Shown piece after piece: positions 20,063 to 52,053 of a stretch of 64,000 nt of DNA. The stretch lies in NCBI RefSeq assembly GCF_003610015.1, contig NZ_AP018933.1, forward strand, positions 2,018,035-2,082,034, given 5' to 3'. Both the position numbers and the translations under genes were made by a program. The notes under the pieces were generated by a model. That model worked only from the letters and a program-made list of their open reading frames with translations. It did not search any database and had not been told where the DNA came from. How positions within the stretch are numbered: the stretch's first letter is position 1; each line of letters opens with the position of its first letter. Source of the stretch: Zymobacter palmae. Lineage in GTDB: Bacteria > Pseudomonadota > Gammaproteobacteria > Pseudomonadales > Halomonadaceae.

Positions 20063-22282
20063 CTACTGCCCACGCAGGAACAATTTGTCCAGATCTTTCA
20101 TTGACAGCGTCGTCCACGTCGGACGCCCGTGATTGCACTGCCCGCTGCGCTCAGTAATTTCCATATCACGCAGCAAGGCGTTCATCTCGTTGAGGGTCAG
20201 GTGACGATTAGCGCGTACGCTGCCGTGACATGCCATCGTAGACAGGATCTCGTTCAAGCGCGCCTGAATGCGATCGGAACGACCAAACTTTTCCAGCTCA
20301 TCCAACATGTCGCGAATCAGTGGCTCGACATCTTCCTGACCGCTACGCCCAATCAGCAGAGTCGGTATCTGGCGTACCAGCAGCGTTTCAGGACCGGCCG
20401 CATCCAGCTCGACACCGAGACGCACAAAAGCATCCTGCTCCTGCATAGCCAGTTCAACCTGCGCCTCGCTGACCGCTATTGATACGGGAACCAGCAGTGG
20501 CTGAGCACTGACCTGCCCCGCATCGTACTGCTGCTTGAGACGCTCGTAGGTGATGCGTTCGTGGGCGGCATGCATGTCTACAATCACCATGCCTTCCGCA
20601 GTCTGCGACAGGATATAGACACCGTGCAGCTGTGCCACGGCATAGCCCAGTGGCGGCGCAGTAGTGGCATCATCCTCTGGAAGACGCGGGACTGTAGTAA
20701 CGCCTTGCGACTGCGACTGCGACTGCGACTGCGACTGCGACTGCGACTGCGACTGCGACTGCGACTGCGACTGCGACTGCGACTGCGACTGCGACTGCGA
20801 CTGCGACTGCGACTGCGACTGCGACTGCGACTGCGACTGCGACTGCGACTGCGGGATCATGCGATCATCGGCATCCGTCATGTCCAGCGGCACTGAAGCC
20901 TTCTGCAATGCTACTGGCATTGCTACAGGGGGTACTGAGCCACTGCCCGCCGTGCTTACGCGCTGTGGTGACAGTAGCTGCGCTTCCTGCTCGCGCGGAT
21001 GCAATGCACGGTAGCCGTCCATAAACTCTTTGATACGCTCTGCCGCCGGACGAGGCTCATTGCTTGTGCGCGCGGCACTACCACTCCCTCCCGTCCCGCT
21101 GCTCAATGAAGGCGAGGTATCGCGCGGCGCCAACCCAAAGGCCTGCTGCTGAGGCGCGCGCTCGGTTTCGCGTGCGGCACCACTGGGGGCCGTCAGGATT
21201 TCACCTGTCGCCGGATCGACGCGCTCGGTGGAGGGTTCCTCTTCGGCACGTTTCGCCCCAGCACGCGTATCAGCCAATGCACGGTGAAGACTGGAAAACA
21301 GGAAGTCGTGTACCAGGCGCGAATCGCGGAAACGCACTTCATGCTTGGTCGGGTGCACGTTGACATCGACGACGTGAGGATCAAGTTCCAGATACAGCAC
21401 GAAGATCGGATGACGCCCGTTATACAGCACATCGCGGTAGGCCTGACGAATGGCATGCGCCACCAGCCGGTCGCGAATAACACGGCCGTTGACGAAGAAG
21501 TACTGCTGGTCTGCCTGCGCGCGGGTGTGCGTGGGCGCGCCGACCCAGCCCCACAGGCGCAGCCCGGTAGCTTCAGCATCAACCTGCAGGGCGTTCTGCA
21601 TCATGTCCTTGCCCAGCAGAGCCGCAACACGCGCTTCGCAGGCGGTCGGGTGGTCAGCAGGCCGCAGATGGTGCAATACCTTCTGGTTGTGCTGCAATCG
21701 CCAACCGATATCGAAGCGCGACAGCGCTAGACGACGGAACGTTTCTTCAACATGACCAAATTCGGTTTTTTCCGTACGCAGGAACTTGCGGCGGGCGGGC
21801 GTATTGAAGAACAGATCCCGGATCAGCAACGACGTACCGCGGGGATGAGGCGCTGGCGTCACGCGTGAGACCATCTCGCGCCCTTCGGCACAGACGCGCC
21901 AGCCCTGAGTCGGCACATCGGTCACGTTTGAGAACAGCTCAAGGCGCGATACGGAACTGATCGCCGCCAGTGCCTCACCGCGAAACCCCAGACTTTCCAC
22001 CCCTTCCAGATCATCAAGGGTGTTGATCTTGCTAGTGGCATGGCGGGACAGCGCCAGCGGCATATCGTCAGGCTGGATACCCGAACCGTTGTCACGCACG
22101 CGGATCAACCGCGTGCCACCAGCTTCCAGTTCGATGTCGATTGAGGTAGCACCGGCGTCGATTGAGTTTTCGACCACTTCCTTGAGCACTGAAGCCGGGC
22201 GTTCAACCACCTCACCCGCCGCGATCTGGTTCGCCAGTCGCGGCGAAAGAATATGAATTCGAGAACTTTGAGCGTCACTCAT
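20063..22282 (-). CDS. mutL: MutL mismatch repair protein with expanded (Gln-Ser)n linker
   Basis: MutL of 739 residues, about 100 more than typical. The N-terminal GHKL ATPase domain (1 to about 335) has [19 protein letters not shown], the catalytic ENSIDAGA, and DNGSGI. The C-terminal dimerisation domain carries [12 protein letters not shown], which fits the endonuclease motif DQHA-x2-E-x4-E found in MutL of MutH-less bacteria. The linker holds about 25 Gln and 24 Ser in strict alternation (residues about 477-526), encoded by a pure hexanucleotide array at 20706-20853. The array length is a multiple of three per unit, so unit loss or gain changes linker length without a frameshift. It overlaps amiB by 4 nt (ATGA). 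Confidence 0.96.
20706..20853. repeat. Hexanucleotide array inside mutL (about 24.7 units)
   Basis: TGCGAC is repeated without any interruption for 148 bp (24 full units plus 4 nt). On the coding strand each unit reads CAGTCG (Gln-Ser). Perfect identity across all units implies recent or continuing slippage or homogenisation. Confidence 0.97.
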
Positions 22283-34791: not shown

Positions 34792-36006
34792 GTGAAAGCA
34801 GACATGCTCTTTTCACTCTGCCAATACCCCTTGCCTCACCATCTGATCACACGCTTGACTGGCTGGCTGGCAGATAACCAGACGCCGTGGCTGAAGGACA
34901 TGCTAATTCGTCGCTTCATCCGCATGTACGATGTGGACATGCAGCAAGCCGCCGAGCCGTCCCCCACCGCTTATGCCAACTTCAATGCGTTCTTTACGCG
35001 CGCACTCAAGGAAGAGGCTCGTCCTGTTCAACAGGGGCTGATATCACCAGCCGACGGCGTACTGTCCCAGTTTGGTACCATCGAACAGGGCGAGATGATT
35101 CAGGCTAAAGGACAGTACTACACCCTAACCAGCCTGCTGGGCGGGGATGAAGACGAAGCACGTTCCTACGCCAATGGCAGCTTTGCCACCGTCTACCTTT
35201 CACCTAGCGATTACCATCGCGTTCATATGCCGTGCCAAGGCACGCTGCGCGCCACCTGCTACATTCCCGGCCGCCTGTTCTCGGTCAACCAGGCGACTAC
35301 GGCACATGTCAGCGAACTGTTTGCGCGCAATGAACGTTTGGTATGCCACTTCGATACACCCTATGGCCCGATGGCACTGGTACTGGTAGGCGCCATGATC
35401 GTCGCCGGCATCGAAACCGTCTGGCAGGGGCGCTATCAACCTGCCCACCCACAGCATGCCACGCGCCAGCAGTTCGAAGCAGGTGAGGTCACGCTGAACA
35501 AAGGGGATGAAATGGGGCGCTTCTACCTAGGCTCCACCGTAGTGGCCTGTTTCAGCGAGACGTTCGATTTCAGCGCGTGTTCGAAAGACATGAAGGTACA
35601 GATGGGGCAGACGCTTGATGCGGCTGATGCGGCTGATGCGGCTGATGCGGCTGATGCGGCTGATGCGGCTGATGCGGCTGATGCGGCTGATGCGGCTGAT
35701 GCGGCTGATGCGGCTGATGCGGCTGATTCGGCTGATTCGGCTGATTCGGCTGATTCGGCTGATTCGGCTGATTCGGCTGATTCGGCTGATTCGGCTGATT
35801 CGGCTGATTCGGCTGATTCGGCTGATTCGGCTGATTCGGATGATTCGGATGATTCGGATGATTCGGATGATTCGGATGATTCGGATGATTCGGATGATTC
35901 GGATGATTCGGATGATGAAGATGATGAAGATGATGAAGATGATGAAGATGATGAAGATGATGAAGATGATGAAGATGATGACAGCAGAGACGATTCTCGC
36001 TTCTGA
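34792..36006 (+). CDS. psd: Phosphatidylserine decarboxylase with a 120-residue repetitive acidic tail
   Basis: Makes phosphatidylethanolamine from phosphatidylserine at the inner membrane. The 404-residue proenzyme cleaves itself at LGST (Ser248) to form the pyruvoyl alpha subunit. The catalytic Asp88 is in SPADG and His142/His145 in YHRVH. GTG start with AGGA seven bases upstream; ATG at codon 5 is an alternative. After residue 276 the protein is purely repetitive: AAD x12, SAD x12, SDD x9, EDD x7, then DDSRDDSRF. The alpha subunit of E. coli Psd also ends in an acidic tail, but not a repeat. Negative charge rises stepwise along the tail. Asp codons in it are all GAT and Ser all TCG, unlike the rest of the gene, so it arose by DNA-level amplification. 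Confidence 0.95.
35620..35979. repeat. Forty-unit 9-bp array in psd, in four blocks
   Basis: Exactly 40 consecutive 9-bp units. Block 1: GCGGCTGAT x12 (35620-35727). Block 2: TCGGCTGAT x12 (35728-35835). Block 3: TCGGATGAT x9 (35836-35916). Block 4: GAAGATGAT x7 (35917-35979). Units are identical within a block; adjacent blocks differ by one, one and three bases. Such order fits successive point mutations followed by local amplification. Confidence 0.98.
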
Positions 36007-36154: not shown

Positions 36155-37042
36155 TTACTTGTTGTCAACCGGAGCGATTTCTACGCGACGGTTTTCAGCA
36201 CGACCAGCTTTGGTTTTGTTGGAAGCAACCGGGCGAGTCATACCGTAACCTTCCGCAGTAACGCGTTCCTGACCTACGCCCTGGCTAACCAGGAAGCGCA
36301 TGACGGAGTTCGCACGCTCTTTGGACAGTTTCATGTTGTAAGCAGCAGAACCGGTAGCATCGGTGTGACCTTCAACGCGAATGCGAACATTCGGGTTAGC
36401 TACCAGACGCTGTGCAACAACGCTCAGGGTCTGCTGGGAATCAGCTGTCAGTTCGTAAGAGTCGAACTTGAAGTGGATGTCGTGGAGAACCAGGTTAGCC
36501 GGGCAACCCAGAGCATTCACTTTGACGCCAGCCGGAGTATCCGGGCACTGATCCTGGAAGTCCGGTACGCCATCACCGTCGGAATCCAGCGGGCAGCCTT
36601 TAGCGTCTACCGCTACACCAGCCGGAGTACCCGGGCACTGGTCGAGGTAGTCCGGTACGCCGTCACCGTCGGAATCCAGCGGGCAGCCCTGTGCGTCAAC
36701 TGCAACACCTGCCGGAGTACCCGGGCACTGGTCGCGATCGTCCGGTACGCCGTCGCCGTCGGAATCGGCTACGCCGGTTTCCGGGGATTTGCACAGCAGA
36801 GCTGCTGCAGTAGCACCACCCACAGCACCAACAGCTGCGCCAGTGCCTTCGTGACTGCCGCCGCTGCTAACGCCGTAGCCAAGGCCGCCGCCGATCAGAG
36901 CGCCAGCGACGCCACAAACGACTTTGTTCTGATACCAGTGAGGTGCTTCGGCACCATTCGGGGAATGATTAGTGCTGGCACAGCCGGAAAGGCTCATGAC
37001 CAGTGCAGACCCCAGCAATAAGCCAGTCGCAGATTTGTTCAT
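36155..37042 (-). CDS. OmpA-family outer-membrane lipoprotein with thrombospondin type-3 repeats
   Basis: 295-residue protein with lipobox LSGC21, then a glycine-zipper segment (about 45-85, VAGALIGGGLGYGVSS...), three calcium-binding-type repeats of the form DSDGDGVPD...DQCPGTPAGV (about 93-190), and a C-terminal OmpA peptidoglycan-binding domain (EGHTDATGSAAYNMKLSKER). It is like the OprF/OmpA C-terminal half but has no beta-barrel; anchored by lipid to the outer membrane and by OmpA domain to the cell wall. The three TSP3 repeats are nearly identical at DNA level. The frame extends to 37153, but ATG 37042 has AAGGAG upstream and begins the lipoprotein signal. Confidence 0.92.
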   Translation of the reverse strand: MNKSATGLLLGSALVMSLSGCASTNHSPNGAEAPHWYQNKVVCGVAGALIGGGLGYGVSSGGSHEGTGAAVGAVGGATAAALLCKSPETGVADSDGDGVPDDRDQCPGTPAGVAVDAQGCPLDSDGDGVPDYLDQCPGTPAGVAVDAKGCPLDSDGDGVPDFQDQCPDTPAGVKVNALGCPANLVLHDIHFKFDSYELTADSQQTLSVVAQRLVANPNVRIRVEGHTDATGSAAYNMKLSKERANSVMRFLVSQGVGQERVTAEGYGMTRPVASNKTKAGRAENRRVEIAPVDNK

Positions 37043-50025: not shown

Positions 50026-51939
50026 TTGATTCTGTACATTGCCGAAAAGCCCAGTGTTGGGCGCGCCGTTGCAGACGTACTGCCCAAGCCTCATCAGAAG
50101 GGAGACGGCTTCATCCGAGTCGCGAATGGCGACGTCGTCACGTGGTGCATCGGTCATCTGTTGGAACAGGCCGAACCAGAAGCCTATGATCCTGCTTACA
50201 AGAAGTGGAAGAAAGAACACCTTCCCATCGTGCCCACCGAATGGAAGCAGCACGTCAAAAGCCAGACGCGCAAACAGTTCAACACCGTTAAGAAACTGAT
50301 CAAGGAAGCCGATCAACTGGTCAATATGGGCGACCCCGATCGTGTCGGTCAGATTTTGGTGGACGAGGTCATCAACTACTCGGGGATCAGCAAGACCAAG
50401 CGCGAAGCCACCCTGCGTTGTCTGGTCAATGACATGAACCCGGCCGCCATCAAGAAGGCGCTCAACACACTGCGCAAGAACACTGAGTTTATTCCGCTGG
50501 CCACCTCCGCACTGGCAAGGGCAAGGGCTGACTGGCTCTACGGCATCAACATGACTCGCCTCTGCACGCTGCTGGGCCAGAGCGCCGGTTACAACGGCAT
50601 ACTGTCCATCGGGCGCGTACAGACCCCCGTGCTGGGGCTGGTCGTGCATCGAGACCGCGAAATCGAACACTTCGTCTCCAAGCCATTTTATGACGTGCTG
50701 GTCACGCTGCGCACCGCGGCGGGCGAGTCTTTCATCGCCAAATGGAAACCTAGCGCTGCCTGCCAGCCTTACATGGACGATGAAAACCGAATGCTCTCAC
50801 GAAAGCTGGCGGAGTTCGTTCTGGGCAAGGTGAAAGGCAAGGAAGGTCTTATCAAGGCCGTCAAGCGCGACAGGAAACAGCAGGCCGCACCGCTGCCTTA
50901 CAACCTATCGGCTCTTCAGATCGATGCATCGAAACGCTTCAACCTGAACGCTCAGAAAACGCTGGACATATGCCAGCAGCTCTATGAACGCCACAAGCTC
51001 ATCACCTATCCGCGTTCAGACTGTCGCTACCTGCCAAAGGATCACTACCACGAGCGCCAGACGGTCACCCAGTCGATCGCTCAAACGGCAACAACGCTGG
51101 CGAAAGCCGTGCAAAATGCCAACCTCAGCCTCAAGAGCAAGGCCTGGAACGATGCCAAGATCAGCGCGCACCATGCCATTATCCCCACGTCTCGGGCCAT
51201 GGCTGCCGAGCGACTCACTCAAGACGAAAGCAATGTCTATGCTTTGGTTGCCCGTCAGTATCTGATGCAGTTCTATCCGCCCTTCGAATATGCGGAGCAC
51301 CAGATCGACAGCGAGATAGAGGGAGGCTTATTCATCGCTCGCCAGACCTCTGTTATTGCCGAGGGATGGAAAGCTCTGCTGCCACCACAGAAGCATGCCG
51401 GACAAGGCTCGGAAGCGGGAGCACCCGCCCTGCCTGACGTGACGGCGGGCGATCCCGTGACGTGCACTGACGGTAAAGTCGATGAAAAGCAGACCACGCC
51501 CCCCAAACGCTTTACCGATGCCACCCTGCTGGCCGCTATGACGGGGATCGCACGTTTCGTATCAGACCCCGAGGTGAAAAAGGTACTCCGAGAGACCGAC
51601 GGTCTAGGCACAGAAGCCACCCGTGCAGGAATCATTGAGCTGCTGTTTAAGCGCCAGTTTCTGATCAAGAAAGGCAAGGAAATCCACTCAACGGAAATCG
51701 GCCGTCAGCTTGTCGGCAGCCTGCCAGAACGCATGGTGGCGCCCGACATGACGGCACACTGGGAGTCCCAGCTTGAAGCCATCAGTGAAAAGCAGATGCG
51801 TTACGGACAGTTTATGCAGCCGCTGACGGAAGGGCTGAATACCCTGATTGCTGAAGTCGGACACAGCAACTTCTCCGCACTGCGCGGCATGGGTAAAAAA
51901 ACCGTAAGAAAAGCTCGGAGAACCACCCGAAAGAAATGA
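50026..51939 (+). CDS. topB: DNA topoisomerase III
   Basis: Type IA topoisomerase of 637 residues. TTG start; the first residues ILYIAEKPSVGRAVADVLPK are the Toprim domain, preceded by AAGGA at 8 nt. The acidic Toprim triad follows in VNMGDPDRVGQILVDEV. The active-site tyrosine is Tyr328 in ITYPRSDCRYLP. The decatenation-loop region and gate domains follow; the C-terminus is basic (KKTVRKARRTTRKK) and lacks the zinc ribbons of topoisomerase I. Three bases after its stop codon begins a pure octamer array (51943-52053). An ATG is absent near the start, so the TTG is used. Confidence 0.96.
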   Translation: MILYIAEKPSVGRAVADVLPKPHQKGDGFIRVANGDVVTWCIGHLLEQAEPEAYDPAYKKWKKEHLPIVPTEWKQHVKSQTRKQFNTVKKLIKEADQLVNMGDPDRVGQILVDEVINYSGISKTKREATLRCLVNDMNPAAIKKALNTLRKNTEFIPLATSALARARADWLYGINMTRLCTLLGQSAGYNGILSIGRVQTPVLGLVVHRDREIEHFVSKPFYDVLVTLRTAAGESFIAKWKPSAACQPYMDDENRMLSRKLAEFVLGKVKGKEGLIKAVKRDRKQQAAPLPYNLSALQIDASKRFNLNAQKTLDICQQLYERHKLITYPRSDCRYLPKDHYHERQTVTQSIAQTATTLAKAVQNANLSLKSKAWNDAKISAHHAIIPTSRAMAAERLTQDESNVYALVARQYLMQFYPPFEYAEHQIDSEIEGGLFIARQTSVIAEGWKALLPPQKHAGQGSEAGAPALPDVTAGDPVTCTDGKVDEKQTTPPKRFTDATLLAAMTGIARFVSDPEVKKVLRETDGLGTEATRAGIIELLFKRQFLIKKGKEIHSTEIGRQLVGSLPERMVAPDMTAHWESQLEAISEKQMRYGQFMQPLTEGLNTLIAEVGHSNFSALRGMGKKTVRKARRTTRKK

Positions 51940-51942
51940 GTC

Positions 51943-52053
51943 GTTGAGCCGTTGAGCCGTTGAGCCGTTGAGCCGTTGAGCCGTTGAGCCGTTGAGCCGT
52001 TGAGCCGTTGAGCCGTTGAGCCGTTGAGCCGTTGAGCCGTTGAGCCGTTGAGC
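51943..52053. repeat. Octanucleotide array after topB (13.9 units)
   Basis: GTTGAGCC is repeated 13 times plus 7 bases without interruption (111 bp), starting 3 nt after the TGA of topB. The plus-strand frames all meet TGA within 24 nt, so it is non-coding in that direction; on the minus strand it is open in all frames but with no gene evidence. Confidence 0.97.

What the first reader, a model, noticed from the sequence alone, without database searches (positions are those of the whole stretch)
35620..35979. Psd carries a 40-unit 9-bp array in four homogeneous blocks, giving a charge-graded tail
Seen: 40 exact units, 12+12+9+7, coding AAD, SAD, SDD and EDD. Blocks differ by one, one and three bases. 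Acidic residues per triplet run 1, 1, 2, 3, so the tail grows more negative toward its end. Known: E. coli Psd also has an acidic C-terminal tail, but not repetitive. Inference: mutation then amplification in steps; the charge gradient may be selected or a by-product. The tail belongs to the pyruvoyl subunit and could affect membrane association.
Basis: partly seen in the sequence, partly recalled or inferred. Interest (0 to 1): 0.85.

Follow-up and report, generated by a model that had tools for sequence, protein, structure and literature searches.

The report
Repeat-built acidic tail on Psd
A bacterial membrane-lipid enzyme carries a long acidic tail built of 40 nine-base DNA repeats, and it is best read as one coding example of a repeat-growing habit seen elsewhere in this bacterium's genome, not as a specially graded device.

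Summary
Family-profile matches stop at residue 275, where the array starts. None of 60 family relatives examined (of 149 with psd) has such a tail. The reading as a charge-graded tail acting on membrane association is not supported. In published E. coli work, removing the last 35 residues leaves activity comparable, and membrane binding maps to N-terminal helices. The array is not alone: 14 long perfect arrays lie in 800 kb sampled from this genome (about 53 expected), against 3 in 800 kb of ten complete relatives, all 3 in one genome. Four of the 14 also join homogeneous same-period blocks differing by 1-3 bases, and look intergenic. MutL's linker and a glycosyltransferase C-terminus carry in-frame arrays too. 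Best explanation: replication slippage plus occasional substitution, tolerated because the tail is dispensable and 9 bp keeps the frame. Whether the gradient is a by-product depends on which end is oldest, which I could not determine. Copy-number variation could not be tested. This genome's dnaQ reads frameshifted, possibly an error.

The parts
34792..36006 (+). psd, phosphatidylserine decarboxylase proenzyme, 404 aa, GTG start
   Evidence: TIGR00163 233.7 bits (cut-off 111.75), residues 51-275; PF02666 198.8 bits, residues 64-275; closest solved structures by sequence are E. coli Psd 7cnw and 6l06, E about 1e-73.
35527..35538 (+). LGST self-cleavage motif, residues 246-249; pyruvoyl is formed from Ser248 by homology
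   Evidence: LGST at residue 246; G247 and S248 invariant in 38 aligned Psd.
35620..35727 (+). block 1: 12 x GCGGCTGAT (AAD)
35728..35835 (+). block 2: 12 x TCGGCTGAT (SAD)
   Evidence: its + strand is the only one of 8 folded pieces (63 nt, 4 blocks x 2 strands) that folds better than shuffles (z -3.5).
35836..35916 (+). block 3: 9 x TCGGATGAT (SDD)
35917..35979 (+). block 4: 7 x GAAGATGAT (EDD)
35980..36006 (+). non-repeated end, DSRDDSRF and stop; the junction text GATGATGAC (35974-35982) is one base from the block-4 unit read as GATGATGAA
20706..20853 (.). second in-frame array of the window: 24.7 x TGCGAC, coding (SQ)n in the linker of MutL (gene 20063-22282, - strand)
   Evidence: not seen in the MutL linkers of the 29 relatives printed (of 60 relatives with a match).
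51937..52053 (.). third array: 8-bp unit, about 14 copies, beginning at the stop codon of the topoisomerase III gene (50026-51939, +)

Best explanation
The psd array is a coding instance of a genome-wide growth of long, perfect, short-period tandem arrays in this lineage. Slippage (or unequal exchange) copies a 9-bp unit locally; now and then a copied unit first takes a base change, and the new version then spreads as its own block, leaving four homogeneous blocks. The array survives in psd because 9 bp keeps the frame and because the end of Psd, after the conserved enzyme, is a disordered and dispensable tail. The acidic composition and the gradient are most simply a by-product of a tail that was already acidic at its 3' end and drifted toward less acidic units away from it. 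Shown: the array, its blocks, the intact enzyme core, absence of the tail in the relatives examined, other arrays and block arrays in the same genome. Inferred: slippage, dispensability in this species, direction of growth, absence of a selected function.
For:: 14 perfect-array loci in 800 kb of this genome (40 stretches, L111-130 and L226-245) against 3 in 800 kb of ten complete or near-complete family genomes (80 kb each), all 3 in G090; two-sided binomial p 0.013, genome estimate about 53 with 95% interval 29-89; same-period homogeneous blocks also in L113 (14+3), L124 (10+22), L233 (6+19) and L237 (8, one intermediate copy, 15), with steps of 1, 2, 1 and 3 bases; two more loci join blocks of different period (L116, L231). 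From ORF context I read all 14 as intergenic by eye; several are crossed by open frames that I took as spurious. In-frame arrays also in MutL's linker and at the C-terminus of a family-2 glycosyltransferase (L223). Pfam and TIGR matches end at residue 275 where the array starts. Tails of 60 relatives (of 149 with psd; all 23 other genera) are at most about 26 residues and, by eye, not repetitive. AlphaFold2: 20 of the first 28 ten-residue blocks above pLDDT 80, the tail 37-58, with only a low-confidence helix at 278-308. E. coli Psd without its last 35 residues is active, and that region is said to be missing in most bacteria (PMC7952604, passages). No scattered synonymous change in 40 units, as expected of young or constantly renewed DNA. 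Bacterial genomes are on average not enriched in short tandem repeats (PMC12699852, passages).
Against: No second strain: the genus has one genome in the held set, so slippage was not seen happening. Array-bearing genomes are not unique to this lineage: G090 (6 loci in 180 kb) and G138 (4 in 100 kb) also have them, and loci around psd in relatives held 21 array segments in 756 kb, some genomes counted twice. If block 1 (AAD) is the oldest, the monotone rise in charge is rare under the random-walk model (0.2%), which would favour selection. Hairpin-driven slippage is not general: 1 of 8 folded pieces beats its shuffles. A survey finds low-complexity regions of prokaryotic proteins often conserved and functional (PMC6821194, abstract start and passages).
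Confidence: 0.75

Rival explanations
1. The acidic tail is selected: a disordered polyanion on the alpha subunit (net about -66) that keeps the enzyme's exposed face off anionic lipids, holds cations or partners, or helps at high salt, with copy number tuned by slippage.
For: Strong net charge; E. coli has an acidic tail too; another in-frame tract has length-dependent phenotypes (synthetic TolA variants with 2 to 39 copies, PMC3477136, abstract); acidic low-complexity regions are enriched in halophilic archaea and thought adaptive (PMC6821194, passages); a monotone rise from an AAD ancestor is rare by chance (0.2%).
Against: No comparable tail in the 60 relatives examined, which include halophile genera; E. 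coli tail dispensable for activity, and membrane binding lies elsewhere; same block build in arrays that look intergenic; decline from an EDD ancestor is expected by chance (77%).
Confidence: 0.13
2. The array is wholly or partly an assembly or base-calling artefact (wrong copy numbers or smoothed variants).
For: Tandem repeats are known to cause assembly errors (PMC6868369, title and abstract start in the listing); the same genome shows a frameshifted dnaQ that could be a base error.
Against: Two-contig genome, 99.65% complete; ordered blocks and different units at many loci are not what simple collapse gives; frame kept across 360 bp.
Confidence: 0.07
3. A replication-fidelity defect drives array growth: dnaQ (polymerase III proofreading subunit) is broken in this genome.
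For:: dnaQ matches in two pieces in different frames in G000 and is whole, over the cut-off, in the 11 other family genomes searched; in the whitefly symbiont Portiera, loss of dnaQ goes with repeat-rich, microsatellite-rich genomes (PMC7821994, passages).
Against: The part after the frameshift is still conserved and stop-free to its end, so the break is very recent or a sequencing error near a GC-rich inverted repeat, and is then too young to explain many arrays; G090, with whole dnaQ, also carries arrays.
Confidence: 0.1
4. The array acts as DNA or RNA (regulatory, structural) and the protein tail is incidental.
For: Arrays lie 73-194 bp before the psd match in six relatives; one block folds as single-stranded DNA better than shuffles.
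Against: The other folded pieces do not beat their shuffles; the unit pattern of blocks 1-3 occurs nowhere else in this genome (31 of 31 hits lie in the array; block 4 was not in that pattern); keeping a 9-bp frame is not needed for a DNA role.
Confidence: 0.05

Closest known systems
Phosphatidylserine decarboxylase of E. coli (Psd, 7cnw and 6l06)
   Same: Same enzyme; LGST cleavage motif; an extra acidic C-terminal tail beyond the conserved core.
   Different: E. coli tail is 38 residues, 11 acidic, not repetitive; here 129 residues, 67 acidic, and 120 of the 129 residues come from exact repeat units.
In-frame variable tandem repeats in bacterial genes (tolA of E. coli)
   Same: In-frame array within a gene, copy number in the tens possible (PMC3477136, abstract).
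   Different: Here four homogeneous blocks in order and at the very C-terminus; copy-number variation not shown.
6-bp repeats in mutL of Salmonella (mutL switch)
   Same: 6-bp array inside mutL (PMC2955026, abstract, section list and section 8).
   Different: Salmonella has three copies, and a 6-bp-deleted allele is the defective form in that work; here about 24 copies code (SQ)n in the linker, and no effect on MutL was tested.
Genome-wide heptamer repeats of Xanthomonas and Nostoc
   Same: Many short-period arrays across the genome, over-represented outside genes (PMC4692102, abstract).
   Different: There one related G-rich unit, preferring four copies (2 to 26); here many unrelated units with periods 4, 5, 6, 7, 8, 9 and 13 and up to 52 copies.
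Microsatellite-rich genomes of Portiera (whitefly symbiont)
   Same: Repeat-rich genome linked with loss of dnaQ (PMC7821994, passages).
   Different: Endosymbiont genome with large intergenic regions; here a 3.03-Mb genome with one frameshift in dnaQ that may be an error.

Membership tests
Phosphatidylserine decarboxylase (proenzyme type) | Match to the family profile over its cut-off | tested here: met
   TIGR00163 233.7 bits vs 111.75; PF02666 198.8 vs 22.
Phosphatidylserine decarboxylase (proenzyme type) | LGST cleavage motif and conserved D, H, S residues | tested here: met
   D88, H142, H145, G247, S248 invariant and D140 nearly invariant in 38 aligned sequences; roles of D90, D142, H144 and S254 in E. 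coli from PMC7952604 passages.
Phosphatidylserine decarboxylase (proenzyme type) | Self-cleavage and decarboxylase activity | not testable with these tools
   Needs protein.
In-frame variable-number tandem repeat | Head-to-tail units whose length is a multiple of three, inside a gene | tested here: met
   40 x 9 bp, open frame.
In-frame variable-number tandem repeat | Copy number differs between strains | not testable with these tools
   Only one genome of the genus is held.
Phase-variable (on/off) contingency repeat | Change of copy number shifts the frame or the promoter | tested here: not met
   The unit is 9 bp and lies at the end of the gene; gain or loss of whole units keeps the frame.
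Lineage with genome-wide array growth | More and longer perfect arrays than relatives | tested here: met
   14 in 800 kb vs 3 in 800 kb of ten relatives. Against: 7 more in 400 kb of four relatives that I picked because they had an array next to psd, so some relatives approach this density with shorter arrays.

The most novel reading that the evidence does not exclude
This lineage is in a heritable repeat-growing state, perhaps from weakened proofreading (frameshifted dnaQ), in which slippage rapidly builds and re-sizes disordered parts of housekeeping proteins (Psd tail, MutL linker, a glycosyltransferase end), so that membrane-lipid synthesis and mismatch repair themselves become length-tunable, with mutL feeding back on the mutation rate.
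Probability: 0.12. Interest if true: 0.75.

Novelty: new member of a known kind. Interest (0 to 1): 0.42.

Why it matters
It is an unusually clean record of how a protein tail can be built: four ordered homogeneous blocks show mutation and amplification alternating inside a housekeeping enzyme. Because similar block arrays sit in stretches of the same genome that look non-coding, it also offers an internal control against a common over-reading, that ordered repeat composition in a protein must be selected. If strains show changing copy numbers, psd and mutL would give a direct test of whether repeat length in disordered parts of housekeeping proteins is neutral or tuned.

Tried and rejected
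Psd unit elsewhere in the genome: the pattern for blocks 1-3 hits only the array, 31 of 31; block 4 was not searched. Loss of nucleases or helicase as cause: matches to the exonuclease I C-terminal domain, RecJ, XseA, SbcD and UvrD exist in G000 as in the 11 other genomes searched (over the cut-off in 12, 3, 12, 10 and 0 of 12; G000 over it for the first four). MutS is whole, and MutL matches its family end to end. An array inside xseA was suspected from its long frame; none seen in the translation. DNA hairpins as general driver: not supported (block 4 gave no structure and no z-score). Naming the species: the 5,060-base second contig shares only a 2% stretch with enterobacterial plasmids; a Psd tree with 27 named relatives puts the window on a long branch among the Halomonadaceae rows (89/89) without a supported sister. 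Alpha-subunit piece against the PDB by sequence: no useful hit.

The tail extraction missed 18 of the 20 short family stretches, and two others (L141, L142); all were read in frame. In the named set, tails were printed for 59 of 80 loci; the other 21 did not fit my motif filter and were not pursued. My note counts 5 compound arrays of 14; one search added L113. Literature searches for a repeat tail on Psd: 39 papers, 20 listed, none on it; 0 papers; tandem repeats in prokaryotes or Halomonadaceae: (capped listings); block-built or acidic bacterial tails; mutL repeats; Psd structure. The library lacks most subscription papers.

Full report
What is there. The ORF at 34792-36006 (+) codes for a 404-residue phosphatidylserine decarboxylase. 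Family-profile matches end at residue 275. From there to eight codons before the stop the gene is a 9-bp array of 40 units in four homogeneous blocks, 12+12+9+7, coding AAD, SAD, SDD and EDD. Adjacent blocks differ by 1, 1 and 3 bases. The tail (residues 276-404) has 67 acidic and 2 basic residues; the alpha subunit that would carry it has a net charge of about -66. Perfect arrays of at least 4 copies and 30 bp did not arise in random sequence of the same dinucleotide make-up (0 in 5 x 800 kb).

The enzyme. The closest solved structures by sequence are E. coli Psd. The cleavage motif LGST is at 246-249, and conserved D, H and S columns hold over 38 sequences. AlphaFold2 on that alignment gives a mostly confident core (20 of the first 28 ten-residue blocks above 80) and a low-confidence tail (37-58 per block), with a weak helix over the first AAD units. 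In E. coli, Psd 1-287 without the last 35 residues converted PS comparably to the full-length enzyme, that region is said to be missing in most bacteria except some Enterobacterales, and membrane association is assigned to three N-terminal helices (PMC7952604, passages only). I did not see a membrane test of the truncated form.

Relatives. The genus holds one genome in the set. In the family, 150 of 151 genomes searched have psd, this one included. I read the end of psd in 60 of the 149 others, covering all 23 other genera (L144 repeats the genome of L003 and is not counted). Tails run from 2 to about 26 residues after the conserved end and, by eye, none is repetitive. In the named set, 59 of 80 tails were printed, none repetitive by eye, the longest about 31 residues in Cobetia. 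So the tail looks like an acquisition of this lineage.

Not alone. The window has two more perfect arrays: about 24 copies of a 6-bp unit coding (SQ)n in the MutL linker, and about 14 copies of an 8-bp unit starting at the topoisomerase III stop codon. The 29 relatives' MutL linkers printed (of 60 relatives) lack such an array. In 40 spread 20-kb stretches of this genome, none overlapping the window, there are 14 array loci (at least 4 copies, 30 bp, period 2-30) with periods 4, 5, 6, 7, 8 and 13, up to 52 copies and 313 bp. The same count in ten family genomes (80 kb each) gives 3, all in G090. I read all 14 as intergenic by eye from ORF context, not from an annotation, and took the open frames that cross several of them (for example in L119, L124, L231) as spurious. 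Six of the 14 are compound: four join blocks of the same period that differ by 1, 2, 1 and 3 bases, though the second block of L113 has only 3 copies; two join different periods. One of them, L237, still keeps a single intermediate copy between its two blocks. A family-2 glycosyltransferase also ends in an in-frame 6-bp array coding (AQ)n; that locus was found through a low-complexity hit of the MutL search, not in the random sample.

Results that cut against a simple contrast. Array-bearing genomes exist elsewhere in the family. Loci around psd in relatives held 11 segments in 530 kb (named set, including non-Halomonadaceae) and 10 in 226 kb (G set), with some genomes in both sets or counted twice. 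In 400 kb more from four relatives that I picked because they had an array next to psd, there were 7 loci: G138 4, G090 3, G037 0, G140 0. The arrays in these random stretches have 7-bp units but for one 6-bp case and single segments of 34-80 bp; near psd they reach 142 bp. So this genome stands out by length and variety of units more than by having arrays at all.

How it most likely arose. Slippage or unequal exchange multiplies a unit; rare base changes seed a new version that spreads beside the old one. That accounts for blocks, for the lack of scattered synonymous changes, and for the same build in arrays that look non-coding. In genes, only periods that keep the frame and places that tolerate extra disordered residues survive: 9 bp in the Psd tail, 6 bp in the MutL linker and the glycosyltransferase end. 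That last statement is inference from three coding cases, one of them found by a search biased to 6-bp units.

The charge gradient. I counted random changes of the unit with steps of 1, 1 and 3 bases and no stops. Starting from EDD, a monotone decline to 1 or fewer acidic residues is the usual outcome (77%); starting from AAD, a monotone rise of 2 or more is rare (0.2%). The model has equal base changes and no selection. The 3' flank is acidic (DSRDDSRF) and the junction text is one base away from the EDD unit, which makes an EDD origin plausible, but polarity is not shown. If AAD is the older end, selection for charge becomes a serious reading; low-complexity acidic regions are thought adaptive in halophilic archaea (PMC6821194, passages).

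A possible cause. In G000 dnaQ matches its family in two pieces in different frames; the 11 other genomes searched have it whole. The part after the shift is conserved and runs without a stop to its normal end, so the break is recent or is a base error; a GC-rich inverted repeat lies there (read by eye). Loss of dnaQ accompanies microsatellite-rich genomes in Portiera (PMC7821994, passages). G090, with whole dnaQ, also has arrays. I keep this as a lead only.

Verdict. A real and striking array, a known kind of feature (in-frame tandem repeats in a dispensable protein segment) in an unusually ordered form, and probably a by-product of a genome-wide habit. The acidic, possibly tuned tail remains open until strains and tail-less enzyme are tested.

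Noticed in passing
window 20706-20853 (mutL, 20063-22282, - strand): About 24 perfect copies of a 6-bp unit code (SQ)n in the linker of MutL; the 29 relatives' linkers printed lack it. Repeat-number change in mutL is described as a mutability switch in Salmonella (PMC2955026, abstract).
   Followed up: partly
G000:C1:1424505-1425226 (L269): dnaQ, the polymerase III proofreading gene, reads as frameshifted near a GC-rich inverted repeat; whole in 11 of 11 other family genomes searched. Could be a base error.
   Followed up: partly
window 51937-52053: About 14 copies of an 8-bp unit begin at the stop codon of the topoisomerase III gene.
   Followed up: no
L005, L007 (same genome as L031), L017, L023, L052, L058: Short 7-bp arrays lie 73-194 bp before the start of the psd match in six relatives; G037 and G140 among them had none in 100 and 180 kb of other stretches. 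A recurrent array site before psd is possible; no proper background was computed.
   Followed up: partly
L223:440-1330: A family-2 glycosyltransferase ends in an in-frame 6-bp array coding (AQ)n.
   Followed up: partly
L237:1330-1526: Compound 8-bp array between two flagellin-like genes with the same start; its two blocks are joined by a single intermediate copy. The flagellin name is my recall, not a search.
   Followed up: no
window 36528-36766: 90-bp imperfect repeat (2.7 copies) in an OmpA-family lipoprotein gene with thrombospondin type 3 repeats.
   Followed up: no
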